Source: an uncultured Clostridia bacterium | GTDB taxonomy: Bacteria; Bacillota; Clostridia; Oscillospirales; CAG-272 | DNA length: 64,000 nt | NCBI GenBank assembly: GCA_947630625.1 | Contig: CANRIL010000006.1 | Location: 1-64,000 of the forward strand | Direction: 5' to 3' | Shown here: one piece after another, positions 8,815 through 61,187 of the stretch | Layout: each line of letters starts with the position of its first letter | Position numbering within the stretch: position 1 is the stretch's first letter | Notes under the pieces: model-generated | What the model saw: only the letters and a program-made list of their open reading frames with translations | Databases searched by the model: none | Told to the model about the DNA's origin: nothing | Translations under genes and position numbers: made by a program

Positions 8815-8839
8815 CCCGCTGTCAAGCGTTATATAAAAA

Positions 8840-9640: not shown

Positions 9641-9694
9641 AAAAATATCGCGGATCATCGTTGATCGGAATCATAAAACAGGATCAATGATCTT

Positions 9695-10619: not shown

Positions 10620-10656
10620 GAATGAATATGAAAAATCGTGACAGGAGTGATAAACG

Positions 10657-10725
10657 ATGGTGCTGCTTTGCGTTATTATCTTTCCGTTTGCAGTTTTATA
10701 TTTCCTTTTGAAAATGAATAAGTAA
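10657..10725 (+). CDS. Candidate 22-aa hydrophobic small protein
   Basis: MVLLCVIIFPFAVLYFLLKMNK preceded by ACAGGAG RBS and followed by a terminator at 10758-10784. Confidence 0.5.
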   Translation: MVLLCVIIFPFAVLYFLLKMNK

Positions 10726-10757
10726 GCTTCATCATCTGAAACGGTGTATTACTGCTT

Positions 10758-10784
10758 AAAAACCGCCCGACATGGGCGGTTTTT
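10758..10784. terminator. Bidirectional terminator between small ORF and metH
   Basis: AAAAACCGCCC-GACAT-GGGCGGTTTTT. Confidence 0.85.
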
Positions 10785-10834
10785 AATTTGCCTTGCGGAC
10801 AGTGACACGTCCTCTTTGTCCGTCACGCGCCTCT

Positions 10835-13165
10835 TTAATCTCCGCGCCGCGTGCCGTAGACTTCATCCGCGATGCGAACGGTCTGCATTGCGTCGCTTGA
10901 GTAGTAGTCGGCGCCGAGGTCGCGGGCGAGCTCATGCGTCAGCACCGCGCCGCCGACGGCGATCTTGCAGTCACAGGCGGCGCGCAGCGCCTCGATCGTC
11001 TTTCTCATCGACGGGACTGTCGTCGTCATGAGCGCCGAAAGCCCGACGAGGCGCGCGCCGGTCGAAAGCGTTTCCGCAACGATCTTCTCCGGCGGCACGT
11101 CCTTTCCGAGGTCGTGAACATCGTAACCGTAGTTTGAAAGCAGAGCCGAGACGATGTTTTTGCCTATGTCGTGGACATCGCCCTCGACGGTTGCCATGAT
11201 CACGATCCCGCGGTCGCGGCAGCCGCCGCCCATCCGCTTCTTTATCTCCTCAAACGACGCCGAGGCGGCGTCGGCTCCGGCGATGAGCTGCGGGAGAAAC
11301 GATCTGCCCGATTCATATTCTTCGCCGAGACGCGAGAGCCCTGGGATTATGTGGCCGTCGATTATCTCAAGCGCATGGACGCCGCTGTCAAGCAGCTCCG
11401 AGGTGAGGCGCACGGAGTCGTTTTTATTGCCGCGCAGCACTGCTTCGGCAAGTGTATAAGATTGTTCGGCGTTTGCCTTATTTAAATCGGAGAAGTCCCC
11501 GGAGAGCGCTTTATAAGCTGAAAGCGCACCTTTCATTGCTTCGGACTCCGGATTCAGTATCGCCGCCGAGAGTCCGCGCGAGAGCGCGAGCGTCAGAAAC
11601 GCGGCGTTGACAGCGTCGCGGTCGGGCAGACCGAACGAGACGTTTGAGACGCCGAGCACGGTTCCGACGGAGAGCTCGCGCGTTATTTTTTCTACGGCGT
11701 CAAGCGTTGTTTTTGCGGCGTCCTTATCCGCGGCGACAGTCAGCGTCAGCGCGTCGATCAGGATATCGCGGCGCGGAATGCCGTATTTTTCCGCTTCATT
11801 TACGATGCGGCGCGCGATCTCAAGTCTGCCGTCCGCCGTCGGGGGTATCCCTCCCTCGTCGAGCGTCAGCCCGATCAATACGCCGCCGTATTTTTTGACG
11901 AGCGGGAAAACATCGTCCATGACCTCGCGCTTGCCGTTGACGGAATTGACGATCGGCTTGCCGTTGGCGGCGCGCAGCGCCGCTTCCATTGCATTTATGT
12001 CGGAGGTGTCTATGACGAGCGGGAGTCGGACTGCTGCCTGTACTTCGCGAACGGCGCGCAAAAGCGTTTCGCGTTCGTCCGTCCCGGGGACGCCGCAGTT
12101 GATGTCGAGCGCGTCCGCCCCGGCGTCGGCCTGTGAACGCGCGAGCGCGACGATTTTGTCCATGTCGCCGGACTTGAGCGCGTCGCGCAGCTTCGGCTTG
12201 CCCGTGGGATTTATGCGTTCGCCTATAACGATCGGGGAGGTGCCGAAAGTGACGGTGCAGGCGCCTGAGGCGGCGCGGGTCGGGAGGGAAACTTCGCGCT
12301 GCACGACGTTCATCCCGGCGACGAGGGCCGATGTTTCGCGGATGAAATCAGGCGTCGTGCCGCAGCAGCCGCCAACCGCCGCCGCGCCCATTTTTGCCAT
12401 ACGCAGGTTGTATTCGGCATATTCGGCGGGGCGCATGTTATAATATGTTCGCTCGCCGTCGACGGTCGGCAGCCCGGCGTTCGGGCTGACTATGACGGGG
12501 AGGGAGGTCGCTCCGAGCAGTTCCGGCAGCGCCTGTTCCATCGCCTCGGGCCCCGTGCCGCAGTTGAGCCCGACGGCAGAGACGCCGAGCGATTCCGCAA
12601 CGGCGGCAAACGTCGTGATATCTGCGCCCGAAAGCAGGCGGCGGTTTTTGTCTACGGTGAATGAGACGAATATCGGCAGATCACACGATTCTTTGGCGGC
12701 GATTATCGCCGCTTTTGCTTCATAAATATCTGTCATCGTCTCGCAGAGGACGCAGTCGCAGTATGGCGCGCCGGAGCGGATCACGTTTTTGTAAAGCGCG
12801 ACGGCGTCCTCAAAGTTGAGGTCGCCGAGCGGATGAAGGAGATGTCCGGTCGGGCCGAGGTCGAGGGCGACGAATCCGTGCCCCGCCTCGTCAACGGCTT
12901 CGCGGGCGAGCCTGCACCCGGCCACCGCGATTTTATCAGCGTCAGGGCTGCCGGGGCGCGCGGCGACGAACGTATTTGACTTGATAATATCCGCCCCCGC
13001 GCGAAGATATTCGCGGTGAAGCGCCTTGATATCGTCCGGGCGGGAGATGTTCCACGCGTCGGAGTGTTCGCCGGGACGGAGCCCCATCGACTGGAGCACG
13101 GTGCCGGTCGCGCCGTCAAATATCAGCAGGCGGCGGCCTAAAAGAGAGAGGAGATTTTCTTTCAT
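10835..13165 (-). CDS. metH: Cobalamin-dependent methionine synthase (Hcy-binding, pterin-binding and B12-binding domains; no reactivation domain)
   Basis: GATGTVLQSMG, GGCCGTTPDFI, VIGERINPTGKPKL, EGDVHDIGKNIVSALL. Confidence 0.92.
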   Translation of the reverse strand: MKENLLSLLGRRLLIFDGATGTVLQSMGLRPGEHSDAWNISRPDDIKALHREYLRAGADIIKSNTFVAARPGSPDADKIAVAGCRLAREAVDEAGHGFVALDLGPTGHLLHPLGDLNFEDAVALYKNVIRSGAPYCDCVLCETMTDIYEAKAAIIAAKESCDLPIFVSFTVDKNRRLLSGADITTFAAVAESLGVSAVGLNCGTGPEAMEQALPELLGATSLPVIVSPNAGLPTVDGERTYYNMRPAEYAEYNLRMAKMGAAAVGGCCGTTPDFIRETSALVAGMNVVQREVSLPTRAASGACTVTFGTSPIVIGERINPTGKPKLRDALKSGDMDKIVALARSQADAGADALDINCGVPGTDERETLLRAVREVQAAVRLPLVIDTSDINAMEAALRAANGKPIVNSVNGKREVMDDVFPLVKKYGGVLIGLTLDEGGIPPTADGRLEIARRIVNEAEKYGIPRRDILIDALTLTVAADKDAAKTTLDAVEKITRELSVGTVLGVSNVSFGLPDRDAVNAAFLTLALSRGLSAAILNPESEAMKGALSAYKALSGDFSDLNKANAEQSYTLAEAVLRGNKNDSVRLTSELLDSGVHALEIIDGHIIPGLSRLGEEYESGRSFLPQLIAGADAASASFEEIKKRMGGGCRDRGIVIMATVEGDVHDIGKNIVSALLSNYGYDVHDLGKDVPPEKIVAETLSTGARLVGLSALMTTTVPSMRKTIEALRAACDCKIAVGGAVLTHELARDLGADYYSSDAMQTVRIADEVYGTRRGD

Positions 13166-14022
13166 TTTCCTATTATATCAGAGATGTTGTTCATTATCGC
13201 CGCCGCCGTTTCGGGGCGGTTCATCGTATATATGTGGACGTGGTTGACGCCGTGCGCAAACAGGTCGATTATCTGCTCGGTCGCGTACGCTATGCCCGCC
13301 TGCCGCGTCGCCGCCGCGTCGTCGCCGAAGCGGTCTGCGATCGCCCGCATTCGGGGCGGCAGGACGGTGCCGGAGAGCTCCGCCGAGCGGATGATCTGGC
13401 GCGCGTTCGTCACGGGCATGATCCCGGCGACGACGGGCAGATCTATCCCGGCGCGCAGCATTCGGTACAGAAACGCGTAGTAGATATCGTTGTCGAAGAA
13501 CATCTGCGTCGTCAGAAATTCAGCCCCCGCCTCCGCCTTCATCCGCAGATATCCGATATCGTCGGCATACGTGCGCGATTCGGGGTGGCAGTCCGGATAG
13601 CAGGCTCCGCCGAGGCAGAAGGAGCCACGCGCGTGTATGTAAGCGATCAGATCGGACGCATGCGGGAAATCCGTTTTTACGGCGGAGCCGTCCGCAGGCA
13701 GATCGCCGCGGAGCACGAGGACGTTTTCTATCCCGTGCTCGGATAGGGAGCGCGTCAGTCTGTCGGCGTCGGCTTTGTCAGACGAAACGCACGTCAGATG
13801 CGCGAGCGCCGGTATGCCGAAGGATTCAACGGCTTCGGCGACGCGGAGCGTATAATCCGCCGTGCTTCCCGCGCGGCACGTGACGGAGATGAACGAGGGC
13901 GACAGCGGAGCGAGCTTTTCAATGATCCGCTCTGTTTCGTCTATGCTCTGAAACGATTTCGGCGGGAATATCTCAAACGAAACAGACGGGCGATCACGGC
14001 GCAGTATTTCACTTATTTTCAT
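13162..14022 (-). CDS. metF: Methylenetetrahydrofolate reductase
   Basis: MKISEILRRDRPSVSFEIFPPKS...ISVTCRAGS...LVLRGDLP; start set at 14022, ATGA overlap with upstream gene. Confidence 0.92.
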   Translation of the reverse strand: MKISEILRRDRPSVSFEIFPPKSFQSIDETERIIEKLAPLSPSFISVTCRAGSTADYTLRVAEAVESFGIPALAHLTCVSSDKADADRLTRSLSEHGIENVLVLRGDLPADGSAVKTDFPHASDLIAYIHARGSFCLGGACYPDCHPESRTYADDIGYLRMKAEAGAEFLTTQMFFDNDIYYAFLYRMLRAGIDLPVVAGIMPVTNARQIIRSAELSGTVLPPRMRAIADRFGDDAAATRQAGIAYATEQIIDLFAHGVNHVHIYTMNRPETAAAIMNNISDIIGK

Positions 14023-14804
14023 CCGTTTTTCCTTTCGGTCAAAGACAGTATCAGCCGCCACGACAACCAGATCAGAAATGCGCAGAGCGTCAGCGCGGCC
14101 ATATATAAAATCGAGTTGACCTGCCAGCCGAGAAGGGCTGTTATGTCCCGGCAGACCGGCAGTGGCGACGGGGTGGGGCCGAGGTAGAACATATTTACCT
14201 CGGGGCGGCTTTTGTGCATCGAAAAATTGATCGCGAACGCGGCGGCGCAGAGCATCAGATAAAACGCGGCGGCGTCGGAGAATCGCTTGCCGCATCTGCC
14301 GCCGGCGGCGGCGCGGACGCCGAGAAAAATCAGCGTCAGGTGCCAGAGAAACGAGTGCAGCGCCATCGCCAGATACGGCCGCAGCATCGTTTCCGGCGAG
14401 ATATATGATGCCGCCCCGCCCATGAGCCCGTAAGTCGCGAGAAACGTATATGCGGCTCCCCGCACGCGTTCGTTTTTGACGAACGGCGCGGCGAGCGCGA
14501 CGTACATCGGGATCGAGCAGAGCTGAAACGGGATGAGGTCGGCGCGCCATTGTCCCTCAACGGCGGGGTAAAACAGCTGTTTATATATCTCCCCAAGCAG
14601 CAGGATCATCCCGACGGCGAACATGAGCGGGTCGCGGCACGCCCTCTCCTTTTTCGGCATCATCTTCGACGTGAGAACGGCGAGGACGCACGCGGCGGGG
14701 ACGCCTACGGCGAAGAACGCGAAATGGAAGCTGCCGTAAGGCTTCAGCCACGACTCCGGCATCCGCCATGCGGTCTTTTTTATCAGATCAAAGAGCGCGT
14801 CCAC
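14019..14804 (-). CDS. YwaF/TIGR02206-like integral membrane protein
   Basis: Multi-TM protein with FHFAFF and QLCSIPMYVAL motifs resembling YwaF family. Confidence 0.65.
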   Translation of the reverse strand: MDALFDLIKKTAWRMPESWLKPYGSFHFAFFAVGVPAACVLAVLTSKMMPKKERACRDPLMFAVGMILLLGEIYKQLFYPAVEGQWRADLIPFQLCSIPMYVALAAPFVKNERVRGAAYTFLATYGLMGGAASYISPETMLRPYLAMALHSFLWHLTLIFLGVRAAAGGRCGKRFSDAAAFYLMLCAAAFAINFSMHKSRPEVNMFYLGPTPSPLPVCRDITALLGWQVNSILYMAALTLCAFLIWLSWRLILSLTERKNG

Positions 14805-14901
14805 GTCATGCCTCCCCCGGTTTTATTTGCAGATACATTATACATTGTTTTTGCCCGCTCTGCAAGCCGATTATTTGCTTTATCGGTTTTTCCGGCGCTG
14901 C

Positions 14902-14930
14902 TTGACATTAAAGCCGACAGGTTGTATAAT
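14902..14930 (+). promoter_or_regulatory. Sigma-70-type promoter
   Basis: TTGACA-17-TATAAT. Confidence 0.8.
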
Positions 14931-14970
14931 TTATTCGCAATGTTATATATAAGATCGGAGAAACAGAGAA

Positions 14971-15738
14971 ATGAAAAAATTTATATCGCTGCTGCTTCTG
15001 CTTGCGCTTACGCTGACTTTCGTGCTCTCATCGTGCGCCGCCCCAGAAGGCGACGGACAGACGACTGGCGGGGACGGATCGGGCACGGCCGGGGAGACGG
15101 GCGGCGCGACGGACGCGAAAACGGACGGGGACGAGCCGGAAGAGGAATTATATCTTGAGGATTTTTATCCGTTTGAAGGCAACATAGTTCCCGACTCCGT
15201 AAAAAATTTCGGCTGGCTTGCGCCGGACGCGACATCTGAATTTATATACGTTGACGCAAGTCACGTTATTCACGACGGGAAGGGTACATGGAACAACATG
15301 ACCGACCGCCTGCCGACAAACGTTTTCGACATGAACGCTTACACGTATTACGACTGCGACGAGACTGACGAGACGGTCAACAACGAGGACATGAACGTCG
15401 GGATACCTTACAGCGGCTCCGAGCCGTTCCCGACGGGATATGTCGGCGCATATATCGAGGACGGCATATATCTGACCGAGATACGCTGGTTCGGCCGCGC
15501 CGACAACCCGGACCGTAACGCGGGCGGCGTCTTTCAGGCGTCCGTCGACGGGGAGACGTGGGTCGATCTATACACGATTCAGTATAATTCCCCGTGCGTC
15601 GACTATATGATCGTTCACCCGAGCGATATGCCCGAATCGTGCGCGACGACGGTATATCACTATGTCAGATACGTCAGCCCGGTCGACGGCTTCTGCAACA
15701 TCTCCGAAATCGAGCTCTGGGGCAGACCGGCGAAGTGA
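14971..15738 (+). CDS. Lipoprotein with discoidin-like C-terminal region
   Basis: Lipobox LSSC; VYHYVRYVSPVDGFCNISEIELWG resembles F5/8-type C domain ends. Confidence 0.65.
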   Translation: MKKFISLLLLLALTLTFVLSSCAAPEGDGQTTGGDGSGTAGETGGATDAKTDGDEPEEELYLEDFYPFEGNIVPDSVKNFGWLAPDATSEFIYVDASHVIHDGKGTWNNMTDRLPTNVFDMNAYTYYDCDETDETVNNEDMNVGIPYSGSEPFPTGYVGAYIEDGIYLTEIRWFGRADNPDRNAGGVFQASVDGETWVDLYTIQYNSPCVDYMIVHPSDMPESCATTVYHYVRYVSPVDGFCNISEIELWGRPAK

Positions 15739-15771
15739 TTTGCGCTGACGGAGCGTGACCGATAAAAGTCC

Positions 15772-16275
15772 TTGTGCGCTTTTAAAAATTTGGAATATAA
15801 TTGCGGATTTCAAAGGGATAACAACCGGTTCCGGTACAGGGCGGCTGCCGTCATAGTTGAGGACGGGTGCGTGCTTTTCGCGGGAAACGAGCGGGAAGAC
15901 TACCTTTATTCCATCGGCGGCGCGGTACATATGGGCGAGACGGCGGAGGACGCCGTCCGGCGCGAGGTATTTGTAGAGACGGGCGTCAGATACGAAATTG
16001 ACCGCCTCGCCGTGATACACGAGAATTTTTTCAATGAAAATTCGGGCTCGCTCAAAGGGCTGTCGTGTCACGAGCTCGCGCTTTACTTCATTATGAAGCC
16101 GCGCGGGACGCAGGAACTGAACAGCGACAGCTATACTCTCGGCGTCCGCGAGCATATGCACTGGATACCGATAGAAAAGCTCCCGGAATATAAGGCGTTT
16201 CCGTCGTTCATGTATGAATACCTGACGACCGCGCATGAGGGCGTCGAGCATATCGTCGCGGATGAGAGGGTATAA
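15772..16275 (+). CDS. NUDIX hydrolase
   Basis: GGAVHMGETAEDAVRREVFVETGVRYE Nudix box. Confidence 0.9.
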   Translation: MCAFKNLEYNCGFQRDNNRFRYRAAAVIVEDGCVLFAGNEREDYLYSIGGAVHMGETAEDAVRREVFVETGVRYEIDRLAVIHENFFNENSGSLKGLSCHELALYFIMKPRGTQELNSDSYTLGVREHMHWIPIEKLPEYKAFPSFMYEYLTTAHEGVEHIVADERV

Positions 16276-16304
16276 CGCTTGACCGGTTTAAAAATCTGAA
16301 AAGC

Positions 16305-16345
16305 GAGGGGAGGGAAACTTTCGATTGGCAGTTTCTCTCCCCTTT
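16305..16345. terminator. Convergent-gene terminator hairpin
   Basis: AGGGGAGGGAAACT...AGTTTCTCTCCCCT with one mismatch. Confidence 0.6.
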
Positions 16346-16358
16346 AAAATATATCGTT

Positions 16359-17813
16359 TTACGCCTCAAACTCGCCGCGTATGTCTTCTTCGGGCGGCGG
16401 CGTCGGATAGTCGCCGGTAAAGCAGCCGCGGCAGATGCCGAGCCCGCCGACGATGTCAGAGAGCCGCTCCGTGCGCAGATATGCGAGCGTATCCGAGCCG
16501 ATTATGCTCCGTATCTCCTCCGTTGTGCGGTTGTAAGCCAGAAGCTGCGTTCGCGCGGGAACGTCGGTCCCGAAATAGCACGACCACAAAAACGGCGGGG
16601 AAGAGACGCGCATGTGGACTTCCTTCGCGCCCGCCTCGCGCAGGATTTTTATGATCCTGTCCGATGTCGTTCCGCGGACTATCGAGTCGTCGATTATGAT
16701 TATGCGCTTGCCTTCGACTGCTTCGCGGATCGGGTTCAGCTTGACGCCGACGCTCGTTTCGCGGTTTTTCTGGCGCGGCTTGATGAACGTTCTGCCGACG
16801 TAGGCGTTTTTGACGAACGCGGTGCCGTACGGGATGCCGGACTGGAGCGAATAGCCGAGCGCGGCGACGTTCCCGGATTCGGGCACGCCGACAACGAGGT
16901 CGGCGTCGACGGGGGAGTCGATGGCGAGGTATTTTCCCGCGAGCATCCGCGAATGATAGACGCTCATACCGTCAATAATGCTGTCGGGGCGCGCAAAATA
17001 TATGTATTCGAAGACGCAGCGCGCCTCCCGTTCGCGCGGCAGCGCGTGAGACATGTCCGACGTGAGCCCCTCGGCGGATATTGTCACGATCTCGCCCGGC
17101 AAAACGTCGCGGACAAAATCCGCGCCCACCGTGTCGAGCGCGCATGATTCGCTCGCGAGCATCCATGTCCCCTCGCGCTTTCCGATGCAGAGCGGGCGGA
17201 ACCCGTATGGGTCGCGCGCGCCTATCAGCTTGCGCGGCGACATTATGACGAGCGAGAACGCGCCGCGGAGCTTGTCCATCGCCCTGCCGACGGCTTCCTC
17301 GACCGTTTTCGAGTTCAGCCGCTCGCGGGCGATGTGGTACGCGATGAGCTCCGTGTCGATCGTCGTCTGGAAGATAGCGCCCGTGCGCTCAAGCTCGCGG
17401 CGCAGCTCCGGCGCGTTTACAAGGTTGCCGTTGTGCGCAAGCGCGAGCGTGCCCTTGACGTAGTTGAGCACGAGCGGCTGCGCGTTTTCGCGCGTGGAGC
17501 CGCCGGCGGTCGAGTATCTGACGTGGCCGACGCCCATGTCGCCGGGCAGCTTTTCAAGCGTTTCATGCGTGAACGATTCGTTCACGAGCCCCATAGATTT
17601 ATGGGAGAGGACGCGGCGCGGTCCGTCCGTTCCGGTGACGGCGATGCCGCAGCTTTCCTGCCCGCGGTGCTGAAGGGCTAAAAGGCCGTAATATATCGTC
17701 GAGGCAACGTCTCCGCCGTCCGTGTCGAATGCGCCGAAGACGCCGCATTCTTCGCCGAGCTTGCGGTCTAAATCCTCAAGCGAGAAAATTTCCTTTTCGT
17801 GTTCCGTTTCCAT
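16359..17813 (-). CDS. purF: Amidophosphoribosyltransferase
   Basis: ECGVFGAF N-terminal nucleophile, ALQHRGQESCGIA, IIIIDDSIVRGTTS PRPP motif. Confidence 0.97.
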   Translation of the reverse strand: METEHEKEIFSLEDLDRKLGEECGVFGAFDTDGGDVASTIYYGLLALQHRGQESCGIAVTGTDGPRRVLSHKSMGLVNESFTHETLEKLPGDMGVGHVRYSTAGGSTRENAQPLVLNYVKGTLALAHNGNLVNAPELRRELERTGAIFQTTIDTELIAYHIARERLNSKTVEEAVGRAMDKLRGAFSLVIMSPRKLIGARDPYGFRPLCIGKREGTWMLASESCALDTVGADFVRDVLPGEIVTISAEGLTSDMSHALPREREARCVFEYIYFARPDSIIDGMSVYHSRMLAGKYLAIDSPVDADLVVGVPESGNVAALGYSLQSGIPYGTAFVKNAYVGRTFIKPRQKNRETSVGVKLNPIREAVEGKRIIIIDDSIVRGTTSDRIIKILREAGAKEVHMRVSSPPFLWSCYFGTDVPARTQLLAYNRTTEEIRSIIGSDTLAYLRTERLSDIVGGLGICRGCFTGDYPTPPPEEDIRGEFEA

Positions 17814-17880
17814 ATGTGACGCTCCGTATCAAAACCGATACGGCAGCCGCCGCCCGGCGTCTGCCGTATGATAAGTTTTT

Positions 17881-18588
17881 TTAGTCAAGACCGAGTCTTC
17901 TGAATACTTCGTTGTAAGCTTCCTCAACGTTTCCGAGGTCGCGGCGGAAGCGGTCCTTGTCAAGCTTCTCGTTCGTCTTTACATCCCAGAGACGGCACGT
18001 GTCAGGCGATGTCTCGTCTGCGAGGATGATCTTACCGTGGTAACGGCCGAATTCGATCTTGAAGTCGATGAGCCTTATCCCCGCCTCGAGGAAATATGCC
18101 TTTAGCACGTCGTTTACCTTGAACGCGTACTTCTTGATCGTTTCGATCTCTTCCCATGTGGCGAGCCCGAGCGCGACGGCAAAATAATCGTTGATGAGCG
18201 GGTCGCCGAGCGCGTCATTCTTATATGAAAATTCGATCGTCGGCTCCTTGAAGGGCGTGCCCTCCGGGACGCCGAGGCGCTTTGAGAAGCTCCCTGCGGC
18301 TACGTTTCTGATAATGACCTCGAGCGGGACTATCTCGACCTTCTTCACCGCCGTTTCGCGGTCGGAGAGCTGTTCGATAAAGTGCGTCGGAACGCCTTCC
18401 TTTTCGAGAAGCGCGAAGACGCGGTTCGTCATTTTGTTGTTGATGACGCCCTTGCCGACGATGGTGCCGCGCTTTTCGCCGTTGAACGCCGTCGCGTCGT
18501 CCTTATAGTCGACGATGACGACATCGGGGTCGTCTGTGGCGAATACTTTCTTTGCCTTGCCCTCGTAAAGCTGCTGTAACTTCTGCAT
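17881..18588 (-). CDS. purC: Phosphoribosylaminoimidazole-succinocarboxamide synthase
   Basis: [29 protein letters not shown]; start moved to 18588. Confidence 0.96.
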
Positions 18589-46821: not shown

Positions 46822-47060
46822 AAAAAGCTCCGTCCCGACAATGGGACGGAGCTGTATTTCCGCGTTACCACCCAAATTCCCGCTTTCGCGGACACTTTGA
46901 TCGGCGTATAACGGCGCCTGCCCGCCGCGCACTACTGATTTTTCACGCGCGGAGCTCCGGGGCGAAATGCTCCACCGTCAGCGTTATGCGCCGTCCCAGC
47001 AAAAGGCGCTCTCTGTGATAACGCGGTCGACGGGGGCTGTCCCCATCAATGCTTTTATAT
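46822..47060 (-). ncRNA. T-box leader upstream of pheST
   Basis: T-box core GGGTGGTAACGCG on minus strand (46861-46873) followed by AGCTCCGTCCC-ATTGTC-GGGACGGAGCTTTTTC terminator (46825-46852); AGAGAGCG and TTC-containing stem I region upstream. Confidence 0.9.
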
Positions 47061-47562: not shown

Positions 47563-50500
47563 TTATCTTACGTTCCTCTTTCTGCGCTTCAGGCTGTCGA
47601 ATGCGACAACGAAGCCGACTGCGCTCAGAGCCAGTATCATGAACCATACGAACGTCTGAGCCTCGTCACCGGTCTGAGGAGGTGTATCCGGATCATTGGG
47701 GTTGTAGCTCGGGTCGGATGCGCCGCAGACAGTGCACTTGCCGTCCTCGAACTTATGTCCCGTTGCCGGGATCTCTTCCTGAGCCTTGAGAGTCTCGCCG
47801 CAGACGGAGCACTTAGTACCGTCTGTGAGGCCAGCCTCGGTGCAGGTAGCGGGCTTGCCCGGAACCTTTTCCTCGGTGTGACCCGTTGCCGGGATCACTT
47901 CCTGAGCCTTGAGAGTCTTGCCGCAGACGGAGCACTTAGTACCGTCTGTGAGGCCGTCTTCGGTGCAGGTAGCAGGCTTGCCGGGAACTGTTTCCTCGGT
48001 GTGACCCGTTGCAGGAACGTTCTCGACTGACTTCGTATCGGTATATGTCTTGCCCTCGAACTCGACGGTCGCGGTGTAGGTCGTCGTGCCTGCCTCAGTG
48101 CAGGTAGCGGCCTTCGTGACCTCACTTGTAACAGTTGCGGGAACCGTTACAGTGTCGTCGTCGTTTGCACAGCTGAACGTTGCCGATGCGGAAGCGTTGT
48201 CATCAGACCATGTGAACGTGGGTTCGCCATAGTCGTGACCCTTGCCGGCGATCGTGACTTCAACAGTCTCGGTCGCGGGCTCTTCTGTCTCGCCGGTCGT
48301 GATCGTGACATCCGTCGTGACATCCTCGTCGCTTACGGTCTTCGCCGCGAACTTGAGCGTTGCAACAACGCCGTTCAGAGCGTCAACGGAAGCGAACGCG
48401 AGTTTGACCTTACCGGTTTCTGTCTCATTGTGTGAGAAGAACTCGGTCTTGCCATCTACGCTTACGAGCGTGAGAAGAGCTGCGTCGTACTCAACAGTGT
48501 AAAGACCGTTCACAGCCTCATCAGCCGTAACGTCAACAGTGTAAGTAGCGGGCTCTTCAGCTTCTTCTTCAGCCGTAGGAACCTCAACATTGTTGAGCGT
48601 GCCTGCAGCTGCCTTCGGCGTGCCCTTGAACGCTTCGATCGTCATAACATTGCTGCTGACAGCTGAGAACGTTGCGGGAGCCTCAACAGCGGCCGTGCTG
48701 ATGGTTGTTGTGCTCGAAAGAACAGCATCGCTGGATGCGAATCTGTCAAGCACGCTGCTGTTATTTGCAACAGAGAAGAGGCTCTCTTCGCCGTTGCCGT
48801 TGAAGAACAGGCTCGTGAGCGAAGAAGACTGGATGCAGCCGATGTAATCGACAGGGAGAACTTCTTCCTCCGAATCAAGGTCGATGCGGAAGAGCAGTGA
48901 CGAGCCTTCGGTGTTGTAGGATATAACAAGATCATAGTTGCCAGAACCAAGGTCTACGAGGTCCATGGAAACTGCCGTGTCGTCCGGGAACTGCGCGCTG
49001 AGCTCGCCATATACGCCGGTGAGCGAGATATACGTGAGTTCTTCGGTTTCTGCGTCAAGGCACGGGATCCACATTACGAAGTAGAGAGTATCTGCGTTGA
49101 GTACGTAGAAGATCTCTGCCGTATCAGCCGGATTTTCAGCCTCGATCTGTGCAGCAAGCGAAGGAGTTACCATAAGTTTCCAATCTGCCGTGCCGCCAAA
49201 TGCAACAGCGGATGCCATGTTGCCGGTACTCGTGATAGTGGAGAGGTCTGACATGCCGGAGATCATAGCTTCGGTAAGGTCATTGAGCATATACATTCCT
49301 CTACCCGGGTCTTCCATGCCGAGCAGCAGCCAGTAAATCGAGGTAGGCGTTTTACTGTCAACAGGGATGTACATCGGGGCGTCGAACGCATCATACTCCT
49401 GACCGTCGATTTCAACCGTCAGTTTAGGAGCGTATGTGAGGTCAACAGGTGCGTAGAACGTAGTAACTTGGCTGCCCTCAGTTACGTCAAGGTCAGAATC
49501 GACCATGTAGAACGTGCCGGAAGCAGTCTTGTCACCGTTGACATCAGCGTCAGAGCCGTAGAGGCCGTCGCCGCCGAAGCCGCCGCCCGTGAAGATCGTG
49601 CCAGCTGTCGCACCGAAAGATTCATACGTGGAAGGATCGCCGAGCGGAATGTCGACCCATGTGCCGTCGCTGAGCTGACCGCCGACAGAAGAGTCGGTAT
49701 CGAGCTCCGTTCTGCCCTTTACCGTAACTTCTACGGTTGCGGTAACGTGGTCGCCCTTATCGTTTGTTTCAACTGTTGTAGCAGTGATCGTAGCGGTGCC
49801 TTCACCTACTCCGGTGATCTTACCGTCTACAACTGTTGCAACGTTGGAGTCGCTTGTCGACCATGTAACGGAATCATCTTCCTCGTAGAGCTTAACCTTC
49901 GCGTTGACCGTCGTAGAGAAGCCTTCATAGAGCGAGACAGCTGTCTTGTCGAGCTTCAGTGCCAGATCAGTGATACGATCGTGATTGTAGTTGACGATTA
50001 CAGGCCATACGTTCTCGTCGAACTTAGCGCCGCCGACGACCTTCCTAGCGTCAAGGTCGATGAGCTGCACCTTCGCAGCGTCTTCGTCTACGCCGTCAAT
50101 GTAGCTTGTAAGAACAAGATACTCTGTTCCGTCCTCATCCTTGCTGTAAGCGAGGGAAGCGTAGGAGGAACCGTCAGCATCGGAAACACCAGTGAGGTTG
50201 ACGCCGTCAACAACACCGAGTTCTTCACGAGACATCGTCGAGCCGTCGAAGAAGTAGAGTGACCAGAGGTCGCCCTGCTCAGTCAGAATGTAAACGTGAT
50301 CTGCAACACCGCTGTCAGCGTCTGCAAATTCCTCAGTGCCTGCATAGGCAAGAGCCACGATGGAGTCGCCGGTCGCAATGTAGCTGCTCATATCCCAGCC
50401 CATGCCCTCGTTGTTCTCAGCGATATTGTAGGGCTGACCAAGGAGGATGAAGTTCTGAGTCGAGTATACGTAGTAGAAGCCGTATTCAACGAACGTCGGA

Positions 50501-53500
50501 ACAGCCGCTGCATCCGTGATCGGCCAGTCAACCTGACCGAGCTCCTTCGTTTCGAACGTGTCGGCATCTATCTCATAGAGGTTGCCGTCAAGGTCGTAAA
50601 CGTAGAGCAGATCGTCAACGAGAGTACCGCCAACGAACGGGATATCAGAACCTTCAATACCTTCGAACTTCGTCCAGTCTTCGGGCGCGTTCGTGGTGTA
50701 CTGTGCATGATATGCCTTGCTGTCATCATCATAGATGATAGCGGAGAACGTCATTTCGGGAAGCGGTTTAACAGTGACTTTTACTTCAGCAGTCGTCTTG
50801 GAATCAGCGTTAGCCGTTGCCGTGATGGTCGTCGTGCCTTCGCCGACTGCCGTGATAACGCCGTTTTCGTCGACTGTTGCAACCTTAGCGTCCTTGGTGC
50901 TCCAGGATACTGTCTTATCGGAGAGCGTCCACGGGGTGATCCTGTAGTCGATCGCCGCGGTGCCGCCAACGAGAAGCTCAACTTCTTCCTCAGAGAGGGT
51001 AAGGCTTGAAACCTTCGTTGTTTCGCCGAAGTCAGGACCGGAAGCGCTCTTGCCGGGTACTACGAACAGACCGCGTGCCGCGAAGTAGAGGTTACCGTCT
51101 GCAACCGTTCCGGTAGCAGAGTTCGCATGCTCGCACACACCTGTTTCGGGGTCAACCTTCCACAGATAGTTGTTCATGTAACCGGTTGTGTAGCCGGAAG
51201 CATTCCTGTTGTAGTAGCTGCTTGCGAGGTAGAGGGTATTCGTGTTGGAATCCCATTCCATCGAACCGCCGCATTCACGAACGGTGTCATTAACAGCCGT
51301 AAGCGGGACTGCATCTTCCTCAACGGTGAGCGAAAGTGTCTTATCAACAACATCGTCGAGCGTCCATGTGAACAGGCGGGACGGGTTGGTTGCAGAAGAG
51401 ACAAAATACGTAGCGCTGTAGAAGTTGCCGTCTTCATCGACCGTGAACGAACGCATTCTTGCAGCAGAAGCGGAAGAGATGTCGTTCTTGATCTCGAACG
51501 CAAGCTCTGCCGTGCCTTCAAGCATGTCGATCGTGTAAACGGTGTTATCCTGGCACATCGCGTAGAGCTTGCCTTCAGACTTGCTGTAAGCGAGGTCTTC
51601 AACGGATGTGATGCCGGATTCGCTCAGGTCGCCGACGTACGTCGGATACGAGAGGTCAAGCATTTCGGATACGTAGAGGTCTGTGCCTACGGTGAAGAAC
51701 ACATAGCCTTCAACGTAATCGGCAGCCGTGACCCAAGCATTCATCGTGGATTCAACGGTCATACCCGTGTGGGCGTCTGTCATGTATGTGTAGGAGACCG
51801 TAGCGGGATCGATGTTGACCCATGCGTGGTTCAGGTCGGTAGCGGCAAAAGCCATGTTCGTGCCGACGAACGCAAACATCTTGCCGGAATAGTCAGGATC
51901 TTCTCCGCCGTACTCGACGGTGAACGTGGACTCGTTGCCGGCGTAGTCAGCGACGAGAATCGTGCACTTGGAGCCGATGCCGTATTTAGCAGCCTCGATC
52001 GTGTATGTAGCGTTGCCCTTTTCATCAAGCTCGGGAGCGAGCTTCATGTCGTAAACCTTGGAGCCGCTGCGGTTGAGAACTGCGATAACAGCGATATCTT
52101 CATTATCGGAAGCCGTGATCGTGAGGTCGCCGTTGAGCAGGTTCTTTGTTGCGCCGAGCAGTTCAGGAGCCTCGTCGTCGATCTTGAAGGTCGTCGACAG
52201 GAACGAGCCCTTGCCGAGCTTCGGGATGACTTCAAGGAGTTCATCAGCCGTGATCTCGTAAGCAGCCTCAGTCTCGGTCTCGGCGATCATATCGTCCGTG
52301 ATGTAGTACTCAGGAACTGCAACGAAGCTTACGGTAACTCTCTTCGTCGTGCCGTTCTTGACAGAGGGCAGAGAAGTGAGCTTTCTGTTCGCGGTCAGCG
52401 TGATCGCCGTGTTACCCCAAGCACCTGTGTTGGAGTTGAAGTAAGCGGAAACGTTATACTGACCGTAAGATGTCGGATTGCTTGCATAAAGCACTTCGTC
52501 AGTGTCGGCGTCCTTGATGACGTATCCCATCACAGCCGCGTTACGGATGAGGGAGAAGCCGAGCTGATAAATAATGCTTGCGCTGTTGAGAGCAGCCTTG
52601 TCAGCCGGGAATTCATCCTCGATGCCGTACGGGTTGCCCATGAAGATATAGTTGTCGCCGTACTGATCGGTGTAAGAGAGATAATTCGTCTGGTATACGG
52701 TGCGACCGTCAACCGTGCCCGTGAGCTGAGACGGAGCTACGTAAGGAACACGGTCGTTGCCGTAGAGGGATTCGATGTAGCTGTTCTGGTCATACATTGA
52801 AGGATCAGACCAGTCGCCATAGAAGCCGAGGATCGGGATGGAGTGCGTAACGTCGAGCAGTCCGTCCTCGCCGGAAACGGGAGATACGAACGTGTAACCT
52901 TCAACGTATGCGCCATTCTCGTAATCAGCAACAGCGTCGGGATCAACCGTGATCGAAACCTCGATTTCAACAGAGTCGTTCGCCGGAACAGCGAAAGCCT
53001 CAGTTTCCATGTTGGAGAGGATCAGGTAAGCGTCATAAGTCGTGACGCTGCCGTCGCCGTCAAGATCAGCTACGTCAAAGTCGTAGCCTTCAGCATCCTC
53101 TGCGAGCTTTTCAACCGCGAGGTCAAGGATCGCGCAAGCGTCCTTAGCGTCGGTTACGCCGTCGAGGTTAACGTCGGCAACAACGGCTGCTTTCGGAACG
53201 AACTCAACGCCGTCGACCGTGTAAACAACGTCAGCGGTGAGAGGCGTCGTCCAGGTGTCGAGCAGCAGCTCGCCGGAAGCCTCGAAGAGGTCCTGTGTGA
53301 ACAGGTCGGTCGAAAGCGTGTAGGTGTTCTCCTTGCCGTTCAGGTTGTTGAGCGTGAAGCTGTAGGAGAACTTGCCGTCCTTGTTAGCGCCGAGCTCAGC
53401 CTTGACCTTGCCGTCAGCGTAGGATTTCGTCGCATCCGCATTCATAAGAATGTAGGAAAGAGCGGAAACCGCGTTGCCGACGTTCGCAAGACCTGCGCCC

Positions 53501-55716
53501 TGACGGAGAACGGGGTAATAGTAGTGGGAGAGGCCGGCGCTGTTTTCGCCGTCAAAGCCCTCTTCCATCGGAACAGCCGTGGACATCAGCAGGCTGAGCG
53601 CAAGCTTGCGGAGCGTGAGCCCTTCCTGTTCGGTGTAACCGTTCTGTTCGAGGAACTGATCTACGAGAGCTACCATACCGGTCACCTGAGGCGCCGCCAT
53701 GGAAGTACCGGACATCATCTCATACTGGTCATGCTGACCAACGTTTGCACCGTCGCCTGCATGAGAACCGTTGACCGAGTAGATGCTTCCGCCGGGAGCC
53801 GTGATCTCAGGCTTCATCGTGAGGCTTTGAGGTACGCCCCAGGAGCTGTACTCGCTCATCGTGTAGAACTCGTCACCGTAAAGCGTGTAATCGAGCTTAT
53901 CGCCGATGGTGATCGTGCCCGTGTAGTATTCTGTAACTTCCGTGCCCTCGCGAGTCGTCTTGTTGGTCTTGAGGAGCGCGCCGTCAGCCTGTGTGATCGA
54001 AACAACAGGAGCCGTTCCGGTATAATCGGTAAGGTCCATGTTGATGACGCCGGGCTGGTTGTTGACTATGATAACAGCAGCGGCACCGTGATTAGCGGCT
54101 GCGTTTGCCTTTTCATAGAAGGAAGTTGTGCCTCTGTTGCAGACAGCGACTTTGCCCTTAATGAGGTCTTCGATCTCAGCGAACTGCTCTTCACTTCCCA
54201 CATCGTCTATGTAAACGAACTGGAGATCCTTGCCGCCGTAAGCCTGCGTGAAGGGAGTATTGGAATAATCCGTCTCGCTGTAAACGATCGGCTCGTCGTT
54301 AACGTAGATGAAGAGACCGGTCGTACCGGCGTTCTCAACGGAAGCGACACCGAATGTCTGAGCGAAGGAACCGGGGCTGCCGCCCGTGTGGAAGCTTACG
54401 TCGTCACCGTAGAGGTAACCCTGATAAGCGTTCGCGGTCGGATCATACCACGGATTCGTGTAGTCAGCCCAGTTGCCGGAGTTACCGGTGGAGGTGACCA
54501 TGACAAGACCCTTCGTGGTGAGCTCGTCAAGAAGCTCGTAGTATGTGGTGGAGTTGCTCCAGCCGGGGTTGACCGAGCCGAGCGAGAGGTTAGCGGAATC
54601 GCATCCGAGGACGATAGCGTCTTCGATTGCTGCAAAGTAGTCGGAATCATAAGCTCCGCCGCCCTTGCCGAAGACTTTCATCGTTACGATCTGAGCATCG
54701 GGAGCGACGCCCTGTACCATAACGGAAGAAAGTGCCTTCTCAAATCCGCCGCCTTCCTTCTTGACATACGCGTTAGCAGCAGCGATACCGGAAACGTGCG
54801 AACCGTGCTCGCTTCCCTCGTCATGCTCGTGGGAAACGTCAAAGTCCATGTCGATATAGTTGTAAGCGAACGGGACCTTGGAGTTCCTGTAAAGCTTTTC
54901 AACGTCTTCCGCGCCTCTTTCGAAAGCGTTCAGCTCTTCGAGGACATCGGCGATGCTGTCGGAAGTCATGAGATTCATGTCTTCCTTATATTTATCTACA
55001 TCGTCATATCCTGCGGCGCCAGCCTGGAACGCGAGCGAGTACTCAAACGCATCCGCGTTAAACGAAACGTGCTCGAGGTCGATGCCCGTGTCAATGATGG
55101 CGATCTTACGGCCTACGCCTGTGAAGCCTGCGCTCCATGCGAAGGGTGTGCCGATCTGGGACGAAGATGTTGCCATGTTGGGGTCGGCAAGTTCGCCCTT
55201 CTCGACTACTGCGGGCTGGTACTGCGTTTCAACGAACACATTCTTGACGCCTGCAACCTTCTTGATGGCGGGGATCTTGCCGAACTCTACGTTCGCCGAG
55301 ATGATGTTTGCCGCCAGGGTGAGGTTCCAGACAACGTCAAGCTCCTTGCCGTCAAGGACCTCGGCGCTGATCTTATCAGCTACCGTTTCCTGCTTGGCCT
55401 GGAGAGCGTCGCGATACGCGACTGCCTTGGAATCGGTTGCGACCGTCTTCGCGTCAAATCCGGCGTCAAGCGTGGATTTGCCTGCAACAACGATCGACAC
55501 ACGGACTACGTCGGTGTCTGCATACGGCGCGTCCTCGAGTTCGTCGTCAGCGTCTATGCCGGCGTCGAAGTGGATGTTAGGCGAGTTGTCCGAGCGGTCA
55601 AAATTAAGACGCTCTGTTGTAGAGTCAGCCGCAAAGGACTGGAACGGCACGATCGGCAGAAGTGCTACTGCCAGAAAAACCGCGATCCACCGCCTAAGAG
55701 TCTTGTGTTTACTCAT
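47563..55716 (-). CDS. Giant (2717 aa) cell-wall-anchored S8 subtilisin-like protease with PA, dockerin-like, BIG2-like and cohesin-like regions
   Basis: Triad IAIIDTGIDLEH / HGSHVSGIAA / MSGTSMAAPQVTG; DVNLDGVTDAKDACAIL...DLDGDGSVTTYDAYLIL; VSWSTKDAKVATVDENGVITAVGEGTTTITAT; PPQTGDE + TM + KRRKRN. Confidence 0.95.
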   Translation of the reverse strand: MSKHKTLRRWIAVFLAVALLPIVPFQSFAADSTTERLNFDRSDNSPNIHFDAGIDADDELEDAPYADTDVVRVSIVVAGKSTLDAGFDAKTVATDSKAVAYRDALQAKQETVADKISAEVLDGKELDVVWNLTLAANIISANVEFGKIPAIKKVAGVKNVFVETQYQPAVVEKGELADPNMATSSSQIGTPFAWSAGFTGVGRKIAIIDTGIDLEHVSFNADAFEYSLAFQAGAAGYDDVDKYKEDMNLMTSDSIADVLEELNAFERGAEDVEKLYRNSKVPFAYNYIDMDFDVSHEHDEGSEHGSHVSGIAAANAYVKKEGGGFEKALSSVMVQGVAPDAQIVTMKVFGKGGGAYDSDYFAAIEDAIVLGCDSANLSLGSVNPGWSNSTTYYELLDELTTKGLVMVTSTGNSGNWADYTNPWYDPTANAYQGYLYGDDVSFHTGGSPGSFAQTFGVASVENAGTTGLFIYVNDEPIVYSETDYSNTPFTQAYGGKDLQFVYIDDVGSEEQFAEIEDLIKGKVAVCNRGTTSFYEKANAAANHGAAAVIIVNNQPGVINMDLTDYTGTAPVVSITQADGALLKTNKTTREGTEVTEYYTGTITIGDKLDYTLYGDEFYTMSEYSSWGVPQSLTMKPEITAPGGSIYSVNGSHAGDGANVGQHDQYEMMSGTSMAAPQVTGMVALVDQFLEQNGYTEQEGLTLRKLALSLLMSTAVPMEEGFDGENSAGLSHYYYPVLRQGAGLANVGNAVSALSYILMNADATKSYADGKVKAELGANKDGKFSYSFTLNNLNGKENTYTLSTDLFTQDLFEASGELLLDTWTTPLTADVVYTVDGVEFVPKAAVVADVNLDGVTDAKDACAILDLAVEKLAEDAEGYDFDVADLDGDGSVTTYDAYLILSNMETEAFAVPANDSVEIEVSITVDPDAVADYENGAYVEGYTFVSPVSGEDGLLDVTHSIPILGFYGDWSDPSMYDQNSYIESLYGNDRVPYVAPSQLTGTVDGRTVYQTNYLSYTDQYGDNYIFMGNPYGIEDEFPADKAALNSASIIYQLGFSLIRNAAVMGYVIKDADTDEVLYASNPTSYGQYNVSAYFNSNTGAWGNTAITLTANRKLTSLPSVKNGTTKRVTVSFVAVPEYYITDDMIAETETEAAYEITADELLEVIPKLGKGSFLSTTFKIDDEAPELLGATKNLLNGDLTITASDNEDIAVIAVLNRSGSKVYDMKLAPELDEKGNATYTIEAAKYGIGSKCTILVADYAGNESTFTVEYGGEDPDYSGKMFAFVGTNMAFAATDLNHAWVNIDPATVSYTYMTDAHTGMTVESTMNAWVTAADYVEGYVFFTVGTDLYVSEMLDLSYPTYVGDLSESGITSVEDLAYSKSEGKLYAMCQDNTVYTIDMLEGTAELAFEIKNDISSASAARMRSFTVDEDGNFYSATYFVSSATNPSRLFTWTLDDVVDKTLSLTVEEDAVPLTAVNDTVRECGGSMEWDSNTNTLYLASSYYNRNASGYTTGYMNNYLWKVDPETGVCEHANSATGTVADGNLYFAARGLFVVPGKSASGPDFGETTKVSSLTLSEEEVELLVGGTAAIDYRITPWTLSDKTVSWSTKDAKVATVDENGVITAVGEGTTTITATANADSKTTAEVKVTVKPLPEMTFSAIIYDDDSKAYHAQYTTNAPEDWTKFEGIEGSDIPFVGGTLVDDLLYVYDLDGNLYEIDADTFETKELGQVDWPITDAAAVPTFVEYGFYYVYSTQNFILLGQPYNIAENNEGMGWDMSSYIATGDSIVALAYAGTEEFADADSGVADHVYILTEQGDLWSLYFFDGSTMSREELGVVDGVNLTGVSDADGSSYASLAYSKDEDGTEYLVLTSYIDGVDEDAAKVQLIDLDARKVVGGAKFDENVWPVIVNYNHDRITDLALKLDKTAVSLYEGFSTTVNAKVKLYEEDDSVTWSTSDSNVATVVDGKITGVGEGTATITATTVETNDKGDHVTATVEVTVKGRTELDTDSSVGGQLSDGTWVDIPLGDPSTYESFGATAGTIFTGGGFGGDGLYGSDADVNGDKTASGTFYMVDSDLDVTEGSQVTTFYAPVDLTYAPKLTVEIDGQEYDAFDAPMYIPVDSKTPTSIYWLLLGMEDPGRGMYMLNDLTEAMISGMSDLSTITSTGNMASAVAFGGTADWKLMVTPSLAAQIEAENPADTAEIFYVLNADTLYFVMWIPCLDAETEELTYISLTGVYGELSAQFPDDTAVSMDLVDLGSGNYDLVISYNTEGSSLLFRIDLDSEEEVLPVDYIGCIQSSSLTSLFFNGNGEESLFSVANNSSVLDRFASSDAVLSSTTTISTAAVEAPATFSAVSSNVMTIEAFKGTPKAAAGTLNNVEVPTAEEEAEEPATYTVDVTADEAVNGLYTVEYDAALLTLVSVDGKTEFFSHNETETGKVKLAFASVDALNGVVATLKFAAKTVSDEDVTTDVTITTGETEEPATETVEVTIAGKGHDYGEPTFTWSDDNASASATFSCANDDDTVTVPATVTSEVTKAATCTEAGTTTYTATVEFEGKTYTDTKSVENVPATGHTEETVPGKPATCTEDGLTDGTKCSVCGKTLKAQEVIPATGHTEEKVPGKPATCTEAGLTDGTKCSVCGETLKAQEEIPATGHKFEDGKCTVCGASDPSYNPNDPDTPPQTGDEAQTFVWFMILALSAVGFVVAFDSLKRRKRNVR
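47756..48001 (-). repeat. Two near-identical 123-bp (41-aa) Cys-containing repeats at the C-terminus of the protease
   Basis: GHTEETVPGKPATCTEDGLTDGTKCSVCGKTLKAQEVIPAT repeated at exact 123-nt spacing. Confidence 0.9.
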
Positions 55717-59782: not shown

Positions 59783-59811
59783 ATTATACAATCGCTGTCT
59801 TCACATGTCAA
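59783..59811 (-). promoter_or_regulatory. Promoter of GH30-like copy 2, -35 overlaps stop codon of upstream gene
   Basis: Minus strand TTGACA-17-TATAAT; TGA stop of 59808..61187 lies within TTGACA. Confidence 0.85.
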
Positions 59812-61187
59812 GTTTTTTTATCCGGTTTGATCCCGCCGCCCGAAATTTTATCCTTTTTTGTGACAAGTCTTGACAGCTCCGCGGCGGCGGCGCGCGCCGA
59901 TATGTCATATATGTCGGTGATTATCCTGATCCCGTAGAGTTCGGCGCGTTCGCGGACGCTTTTGATGCGGGACGGCGGGATCGTTTCGTCCCTTCCGTCG
60001 AGCGACGGGGCGACGAGGACGGCAATTTTTTCGTTGCCGCCGAACTGCGTCGTGACAGCGGCGAATTTATAAAGCTCCTCGGAGCCGACGCGCCCGTTCT
60101 TGCACGAAATGAAGACGGGGATCGCGCCGAGCATGAAGATGCAGTCGATCTCGTTGTCGGAGCTGCCCTCCTCGCCGTCAAACGAGAGGCTGACGCCCGA
60201 AACGGCGCGTCCGTCCGACGAAACGTTACAGGCGACGGAGTTCATGTACAGTTCGAGAAGCGCGCCCGCGCTTTTGAGGCATGCGGCGACGGCGTGCGAG
60301 CGGCAGCGGTACCAGCGGCGCGAGGGGTCGCCTCCGCGCGGTTTCAATGCGCCGGACGAGACGAGGTCAGCGACGAGATTTGAGACGGCGCGTATTTTTG
60401 CCTCGTTGCCGTTTACGTAGATGTCGAGCGAGTGCTCCCCCTTCATGTGCAGCCTGTCGGGGACAAGGTCGTTCCACGTGCGGCGCGAGCGGCGCACCAT
60501 CGCAGACCAGACGAGCGCGGTGTCGCGCGATATCTCCTCCATCGTCATGCCGCGCGCGAGCAGTTCCGTGACTGTCGAGCGTTCGACAACGCCGCCGTAT
60601 ATGCGTATGCACTCGTCGACGCTCAAGGAGACGCGCGCGGTTTCTTCATCCGTGAACATGCGGACGACTGTTTCCGAGCCGTCTCCGGTTTTGCTGTAGC
60701 TTGTGAGTTTTCTGTCGGCGAAGTCGAGCCGGATGCAGGAAAACCCGCCGGGCGCGCGCGAGTATACGTATCCCGCGGCGAGGTAGAGCTCCGGCGTTCC
60801 GCCCTCGATATCGAGGACGGCGTCGTCGCCGGCAAACGCTTCGAGTACGGCGGCGAGTTCCATCATGTCCGAGGTGTGCGTCTCGACGAATTCAACCTTT
60901 TCGGGCACGCAGCCGCGGGATTCCCAGAGGCGGCGGTACGCGTCCTTATATTTGCGGTAAACGGCGGAGGCGTGCTCCGGGACGATGAAGACGACGCGGC
61001 GCGGCAAAAGGAGCATCACGCCGAGCGCGTTATATATATGTGTGTCAGGGTCGTAGAGCTCGACGAGTGTGTCCGTCTTCCGCCCTCCCTCTCCCGCCGG
61101 GGCGGCAGTCCCTTCCGCGGCGACGGGTGTTTCCGCTTTGTCAGCCATGCTTTGTTTGTCAGCCTCCGCTTCATTATGGTTGCGCAT
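59808..61187 (-). CDS. Card1/DUF1887-like protein: CARF-like N-terminus plus PD-(D/E)xK nuclease C-terminus
   Basis: VLDIEGGTPELYLAAGYVY CARF-like segment; central wHTH-like region; DNEIDCIFMLGAIPVFISCKNGRVGSEELYKFAAVTTQFGG nuclease motif; alternative start at 61148. Confidence 0.75.
   Translation of the reverse strand: MRNHNEAEADKQSMADKAETPVAAEGTAAPAGEGGRKTDTLVELYDPDTHIYNALGVMLLLPRRVVFIVPEHASAVYRKYKDAYRRLWESRGCVPEKVEFVETHTSDMMELAAVLEAFAGDDAVLDIEGGTPELYLAAGYVYSRAPGGFSCIRLDFADRKLTSYSKTGDGSETVVRMFTDEETARVSLSVDECIRIYGGVVERSTVTELLARGMTMEEISRDTALVWSAMVRRSRRTWNDLVPDRLHMKGEHSLDIYVNGNEAKIRAVSNLVADLVSSGALKPRGGDPSRRWYRCRSHAVAACLKSAGALLELYMNSVACNVSSDGRAVSGVSLSFDGEEGSSDNEIDCIFMLGAIPVFISCKNGRVGSEELYKFAAVTTQFGGNEKIAVLVAPSLDGRDETIPPSRIKSVRERAELYGIRIITDIYDISARAAAAELSRLVTKKDKISGGGIKPDKKT

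What the first reader, a model, noticed from the sequence alone, without database searches (positions are those of the whole stretch)
59808..61187. Orphan Card1/DUF1887-like CARF-nuclease among glycan genes, with no CRISPR or type III genes in the window
N-terminal CARF-like segment (LDIEGGTPELYLAAGY), a central wHTH-like stretch and a C-terminal nuclease motif (NEIDCIFMLGAIPVFISCKNG) match the layout of Card1-type cyclic-oligoadenylate-activated nucleases. No Cas10, csm/cmr, ring nuclease, cyclase or CRISPR array is visible in 64 kb. Inference: either a trans-acting effector of a remote type III locus, or a stand-alone sensor responding to another nucleotide signal. This is the strongest candidate for an undescribed defence or stress system here.
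Basis: partly seen in the sequence, partly recalled or inferred. Interest (0 to 1): 0.7.

Follow-up and report, generated by a model that had tools for sequence, protein, structure and literature searches.

The report
Stand-alone Can2-like nuclease, altered active site
This gene encodes a relative of the Card1/Can2 nucleases that CRISPR systems switch on with a small signal molecule, but it belongs to a chromosomal branch that lives without that CRISPR machinery and has a rearranged cutting site and a charge-reversed signal pocket, so it probably answers to a different, still unknown signal.

Summary
The ORF at 59808-61187(-) is real and is a CARF plus PD-(D/E)xK protein. The model (pLDDT 89) matches Can2, VC1899, Cdn1 and Card1, and a family profile finds Can2 at 1e-14. 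The orphan status holds beyond the window. The genome has no RAMP proteins, Cas10 palm domain, SMODS cyclase or mCpol; its one Cas1 locus found is type I-C, on another contig. In the class sample, 47 genomes with this family and 53 with type III overlap in 5 (6.4 expected), never on one contig. So 'effector of a remote type III locus' is not supported.

Two points were not in the finding. (1) All 64 aligned homologues have S-C-K where five solved Can2/Card1-type enzymes have catalytic E-C-K. All 64 instead carry a Glu in the next helix (K+8 or K+11), which those five lack. This resembles the carboxylate migration known in Cfr10I/NgoMIV. (2) The CARF pocket is charge-reversed: the post-strand-4 K/R survives in 3 of 64, and strand-1 Ser is Asp/Glu in 58 of 64.

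Best reading: a vertically inherited, ligand-gated nuclease, probably active and probably not cOA-gated. Ligand, substrate and role are unknown. Orphan DUF1887 proteins are precedented (VC1899). New variant of a known kind.

The parts
59808..61187 (-). CARF + PD-(D/E)xK nuclease ORF (459 aa as called; likely start downstream, near 61076-61148)
60657..61076 (-). N-terminal CARF (Rossmann-like) domain, approximate limits
   Evidence: AF2 model residues about 1-140 of 422; Foldseek to Can2/Card1/VC1899
61050..61061 (-). Strand-1 motif E-L-Y-D: E in 60/64 homologues; D replaces Can2 cA4-contact Ser19
   Evidence: PMC7969007; PMC4012209
60792..60812 (-). Post-strand-4 motif D-I-E-G-G-T-P: lacks the CARF K/R (Can2 Lys99 position is Pro here, E/D in 45/64 homologues)
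   Evidence: PMC4012209
60252..60254 (-). Invariant helix Glu (residue 275 of the 422-aa form), counterpart of the Cdn1 E274 metal-network residue
   Evidence: 64/64 homologues; PMC12825302
60144..60155 (-). N-E-I-D: first catalytic half-motif, E and D 64/64
60099..60107 (-). S-C-K: second catalytic half-motif with Ser in place of the ExK Glu, 64/64
60075..60077 (-). Helix Glu at K+8 (residue 334), proposed relocated catalytic carboxylate
   Evidence: E at K+8 in 32 and at K+11 in 32 of 64; absent in five solved Can2/Card1-type enzymes
59783..59811 (-). Consensus-perfect sigma-70-like promoter (TTGACA-17-TATAAT) at the ORF's 3' end, upstream of the GH30 gene; suggests GH30 is transcribed independently

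Best explanation
The gene encodes a stand-alone nuclease of the CARF4/Can2-Card1 (DUF1887) fold class, inherited with the chromosome rather than carried in a CRISPR or mobile locus. By homology it should act as a homodimer: a ligand at the CARF dimer pocket closes the two PD-(D/E)xK domains into an active cleft that nicks DNA or cuts RNA (inferred). The nuclease is probably active although the ExK Glu is Ser, because the missing carboxylate has moved to the next helix (K+8 here), as in Cfr10I/NgoMIV-type enzymes (supported by sequence, geometry not measured). The trigger is probably not cyclic oligoadenylate, because no known cOA synthase is found in the genome and the pocket's conserved basic and hydroxyl residues are replaced by acidic ones or proline. 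The likely role is a conditional growth-arrest or nucleic-acid-damage response, defensive or stress-related, to an unidentified ligand (inference).
For: Fold: AF2 pLDDT 89, Foldseek Can2 6.7e-20, VC1899, Cdn1, Card1; profile vs PDB 7bdv 1e-14. No cOA source: RAMP, Cas10 palm2, SMODS and mCpol all absent. No type III association: 5/47 vs 6.4 expected, Fisher p 0.65, none on a shared contig; within 147 relatives 28 carriers, 5 type III genomes, 2 shared, on different contigs. Active site: E-x-D and K 64/64, Ser at ExK 64/64, helix Glu at K+8 or K+11 in 64/64; five solved homologues (7bdv, 1xmx, 8bao, Card1, Cdn1) have E-C-K and no helix Glu at either place. Carboxylate migration is precedented (PMC551604). 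Pocket: S19 to D/E in 58/64, K99 to non-basic in all but 3 of 64; CARF families lacking that K/R were proposed to bind other ligands (PMC4012209). Purifying selection. Chromosomal context: direct or near neighbours include dxs, pheS/T, secA, thrS and smc homologues, named by my reading except pheS/T; no phage, plasmid or viral-contig relatives.
Against: The K+8/K+11 exchange maps to one change on the tree (branch support 74), so it is not repeated evidence. Cdn1 shows that cOA pockets vary within the Can2 family, so altered contacts do not exclude cOA binding. A new kind of cyclase would escape the searches. The genome is a 94% complete draft.
Confidence: 0.55

Rival explanations
1. Degenerate CRISPR leftover: like VC1899 in the view of Zhu et al., a former type III effector cast adrift, with weakened catalysis and no current ligand-gated function.
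For: VC1899 is an orphan DUF1887 protein with weak RNase activity not regulated by cA4 and an acidic pocket (PMC7969007). The window clade has a long stem branch (2.69) and lost cA4-contact residues.
Against: E-x-D, K, helix Glu and metal-network Glu are invariant in 64/64 divergent homologues. dN/dS 0.12-0.46 within the genus. Wide conservation across the class without type III is unlike decay.
Confidence: 0.2
2. A real cOA effector working in trans: activated by cyclic oligoadenylate from a cyclase elsewhere in the genome or from another cell or element.
For: Same fold as cA4-activated enzymes. Cdn1 shows variable cOA pockets in this family (PMC12825302). Two of 28 carrier relatives also have type III genes.
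Against: No RAMP, Cas10, SMODS or mCpol in the genome. No co-occurrence with type III. The post-strand-4 basic residue present in Can2, Card1, Cdn1 and VC1899 is lost in 61/64.
Confidence: 0.12
3. A house-keeping nuclease (repair, RNA turnover or replication stress) whose CARF domain is a metabolite sensor or only a dimerisation module, with no link to phage defence.
For: Neighbours are mostly house-keeping genes, including smc in two genomes of one family and secA in three genomes of another. No mobile-element relatives.
Against: Patchy presence (28/147 relatives; 8/12 of the genus) is unlike a core house-keeping gene. The genus members do not share one location.
Confidence: 0.13

Closest known systems
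Can2 / Card1 (DUF1887, PF09002; S. thermosulfidooxidans Can2 7bdv, T. succinifaciens Card1 6wxw)
   Same: CARF plus C-terminal PD-(D/E)xK domain, whole-length fold match, invariant E-x-D and K, metal-network Glu
   Different: S-C-K instead of E-C-K with a helix Glu; no K/R after strand 4; Ser19, Thr42, Lys99, Tyr118 equivalents are Asp, Pro, Pro, Arg; no type III locus
VC1899 of Vibrio cholerae (1xmx)
   Same: Orphan DUF1887 protein outside type III; acidic residues in the CARF pocket; same fold
   Different: VC1899 keeps E-C-K, no helix Glu, and an Arg after strand 4; the window protein differs at all three
Cdn1 (9u49, Psychrobacter lutiphocae)
   Same: Same fold; E274, E308, D310 and K325 equivalents all conserved here
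   Different: Cdn1 needs E323 (Ser here), binds cA3/cA4/cA6, sits in a type III-B locus
PADLOC CARF4--CARF_PDDEXK models (PDLC01880, PDLC01895)
   Same: Best library match: 8.9e-10 for the window protein, 1e-23 to 1e-62 for six homologues, so the broad group is already catalogued
   Different: The catalogue entry gives no function, ligand or active-site variant
Cfr10I / NgoMIV restriction enzymes (PD-XXK-E active site)
   Same: Works like them in one respect: carboxylate of the (D/E)xK half-motif apparently moved to another element near the site (PMC551604)
   Different: Only the active-site trick is shared; different domain architecture and no family membership claimed

Membership tests
Can2/Card1 (DUF1887) nucleases | N-terminal CARF Rossmann fold with C-terminal PD-(D/E)xK domain | tested here: met
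   AF2 pLDDT 89; Foldseek 7bdv 6.7e-20 over full length; profile hit 1e-14
Can2/Card1 (DUF1887) nucleases | Match to PF09002 above Pfam's cut-off | tested here: not met
   15 bits vs 26.4 for the window protein; many homologues pass
Can2/Card1 (DUF1887) nucleases | Catalytic E-x-D ... E-x-K | tested here: not met
   E-x-D and K met; ExK Glu is Ser in 64/64
Can2/Card1 (DUF1887) nucleases | cA4-contact residues Ser19, Thr42, Lys99, Tyr118 | tested here: not met
   Asp, Pro, Pro, Arg at the aligned positions
Can2/Card1 (DUF1887) nucleases | Association with a type III CRISPR locus | tested here: not met
Can2/Card1 (DUF1887) nucleases | cOA-activated, metal-dependent nuclease activity | not testable with these tools
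   needs purified protein
CARF superfamily | S/T at end of strand 1 and K/R after strand 4 | tested here: not met
   D at strand 1 (D/E 58/64); P after strand 4 (K/R 3/64) (criterion from PMC4012209)
CARF superfamily | CARF Rossmann-like fold | tested here: met
   Foldseek also finds ring nucleases, Csa3, Csm6 and Cam1 besides the full-length Can2-type matches
PD-XXK-E (Cfr10I/NgoMIV-type) active site | No acid at the ExK position, acid present in the following helix | tested here: met
   64/64
PD-XXK-E (Cfr10I/NgoMIV-type) active site | Relocated carboxylate occupies the same place in the metal site | not testable with these tools
CBASS / other cyclic-nucleotide effector | CD-NTase or other known cyclase in the genome | tested here: not met
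   SMODS absent in own genome and in all carrier relatives; mCpol absent in own genome

The most novel reading that the evidence does not exclude
A widespread, chromosomal, CRISPR-independent branch of CARF nucleases in this bacterial class uses a relocated catalytic Glu and a charge-inverted CARF pocket that senses an endogenous, non-cyclic-oligoadenylate ligand; CARF-nuclease signalling would then have a life of its own outside type III immunity.
Probability: 0.4. Interest if true: 0.72.

Novelty: new variant of a known kind. Interest (0 to 1): 0.5.

Why it matters
CARF nucleases are usually described as servants of type III CRISPR. A conserved branch that lives without any known cyclic-oligoadenylate source would mean that some CARF domains read other signals, and it gives precise residues to test: the Ser/Glu exchange for catalysis and the acidic pocket for the ligand. 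It also warns annotators against calling every DUF1887 gene a CRISPR effector.

Tried and rejected
Link to glycan genes rejected: the GH30 gene downstream has its own consensus-perfect promoter, and G004, G007 and G010 carry the nuclease beside other genes. Degenerate-active-site idea weakened by 64/64 conservation. Repeated independent Glu shifts rejected: the tree needs only one change. Phage or plasmid origin not supported: no match in phages, plasmids or viral contigs. The class-sample CARF match at a type III locus (G152) covers only part of the CARF region and no NExD...CK nuclease motif was found on its contig, so it was set aside; the two partial matches G255 and G486 were also set aside. 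A link between the window gene and the paralogue's AAA/membrane-protein partners was rejected: the membrane protein is absent from most genus genomes with the window gene. The membrane-protein structure model is poor (pLDDT 47) and was not used. The Makarova 2020 CARF classification and the Jungfer 2024 Can2 paper were not held, so prior notice of the S-C-K variant there cannot be excluded.

Full report
What is there. The ORF at 59808-61187 on the minus strand is intact, 459 codons. Orthologues start near codon 38, so the first 37 codons may not be translated; this does not affect the domains. It lies between a divergent GH106-like gene and a tandem pair of GH30-like genes. The GH30 gene downstream carries its own TTGACA-17-TATAAT promoter, which overlaps the end of the nuclease gene. 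In G001 and G008 the gene sits after dxs (my reading) and before GH30; in G004, G007 and G010 it sits among other genes. The glycan context is therefore probably incidental.

Identity. Pfam PF09002 is only a sub-threshold match (15 bits), but PADLOC's CARF4--CARF_PDDEXK models match at 8.9e-10. A profile of 27 homologues finds Can2 7bdv (1e-14), VC1899 (3.8e-9) and 8bao (9.9e-9) among solved structures. AF2 gives pLDDT 89 and pTM 0.88. Foldseek ranks Can2, VC1899, Cdn1, 8bao, Card1 and T. brockii Can2 first, all over the whole length. The fold is settled. RMSDs of 4.5-9 A for most of these matches presumably reflect domain orientation.

No cyclic-oligoadenylate source. The genome (2.49 Mb, 94% complete) has no RAMP protein, Cas10 palm2, SMODS or mCpol domain. 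Its one Cas1 locus found is type I-C with about 38 repeats on contig C5. Among 147 relatives, 28 carry the nuclease and 5 have RAMP proteins; 2 have both, on different contigs. The one genus member with RAMP proteins (G011) lacks the nuclease. In 388 genomes of the class, 47 carriers and 53 type III genomes share 5 (6.4 expected, Fisher p = 0.65), never on one contig. Draft-assembly fragmentation weakens the contig statement but not the genome-level counts.

Catalytic site. Zhu et al. and the Cdn1 study establish E-x-D and E-x-K as the Can2-family site; Cdn1 E308A, D310A and E323A are each inactive (PMC7969007, PMC12825302). In 64 of 64 aligned homologues the E-x-D Glu and Asp, the Lys and the helix Glu (Cdn1 E274) are present, but the ExK Glu is Ser. 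Every one of the 64 has a Glu in the next helix, at K+8 with Lys at K+11 (32) or at K+11 (32). The solved E-C-K enzymes 7bdv, 1xmx, 8bao, Card1 and Cdn1 have Thr, Thr, Asp, Ala and Asn at the first position and Lys at the second (my reading of the printed alignments). This is a clean reciprocal exchange and matches the PD-XXK-E pattern described for Cfr10I, NgoMIV and others (PMC551604). The K+8/K+11 split needs one change on the tree, so it counts as one event. Geometry was not measured.

Signal pocket. The CARF signature is S/T at the end of strand 1 and K/R after strand 4 (PMC4012209). Here strand 1 ends in Asp (D/E in 58/64) and the strand-4 basic residue is Pro (E/D in 45/64, K/R in 3/64). 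The four residues shared by Can1 and Can2 for cA4 contact are Asp, Pro, Pro and Arg. VC1899, which is not regulated by cA4, also has an acidic pocket (PMC7969007). Yet E6 (60/64) and N16 (62/64) are conserved, so the pocket is probably used, for something else. This is inference.

Evolution. dN/dS within the genus is 0.12-0.46, with dS partly saturated. The window clade of seven has a long stem (2.69) and short inner branches, as could follow a shift in function. Neighbours across 60-odd loci are mostly house-keeping genes by my reading, and relatives are absent from phage, plasmid and viral-contig collections. The gene is patchy in the class, so it is not core.

Judgement. Shown: fold, orphan status, Ser at ExK with helix Glu, altered pocket, purifying selection. 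Inferred: homodimer gating, activity, non-cOA ligand, biological role. It resembles Can2 in architecture; it fails the catalytic-motif, ligand-residue and type III criteria as written, so it is filed as a variant of that kind. Orphan DUF1887 genes are known, so the class is not new; the consistent active-site variant and pocket inversion may be, although two key papers could not be read.

Noticed in passing
L046 (G000:C7) 7871-15057: A paralogue of the window gene (28% identity) is followed on the same strand by a 1150-aa AAA_2+AAA+Peptidase_M41 protein and a 757-aa putative membrane protein with no Pfam family. Similar AAA genes lie beside or near the nuclease in L036, L040, L057, L059, and the membrane protein in L061, L063, L097; this could be a conserved three-gene module.
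   Followed up: partly
L041 9015-13253 (G123): One 1412-aa ORF joins a protein kinase domain, a region related to that membrane protein, and an S-C-K CARF nuclease, linking these parts physically.
   Followed up: partly
L096 6576-9059 (G427): The nuclease ORF runs on into a CCA/poly(A) tRNA nucleotidyltransferase (827 aa). Single case; could be a lost stop codon.
   Followed up: no
L116 and L118 (G245, G192): The nuclease gene overlaps the 3' end of an smc-like gene (by 3 and 40 nt) in two genomes of one family.
   Followed up: no
L065 (G000:C5) about 7237-17894: Type I-C CRISPR locus: cas3, cas5c, cas8c, cas7, cas4, cas1 plus about 38 repeats.
   Followed up: yes
window 46839-47058 (-): T-box leader upstream of pheS/pheT (RF00230, 101 bits).
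   Followed up: no
window 47563-55716 (-): 2717-aa secreted protein that by eye looks like a subtilisin-like surface protease with dockerin-like and cell-wall anchor features; a 123-bp tandem repeat near its C-terminus.
   Followed up: no
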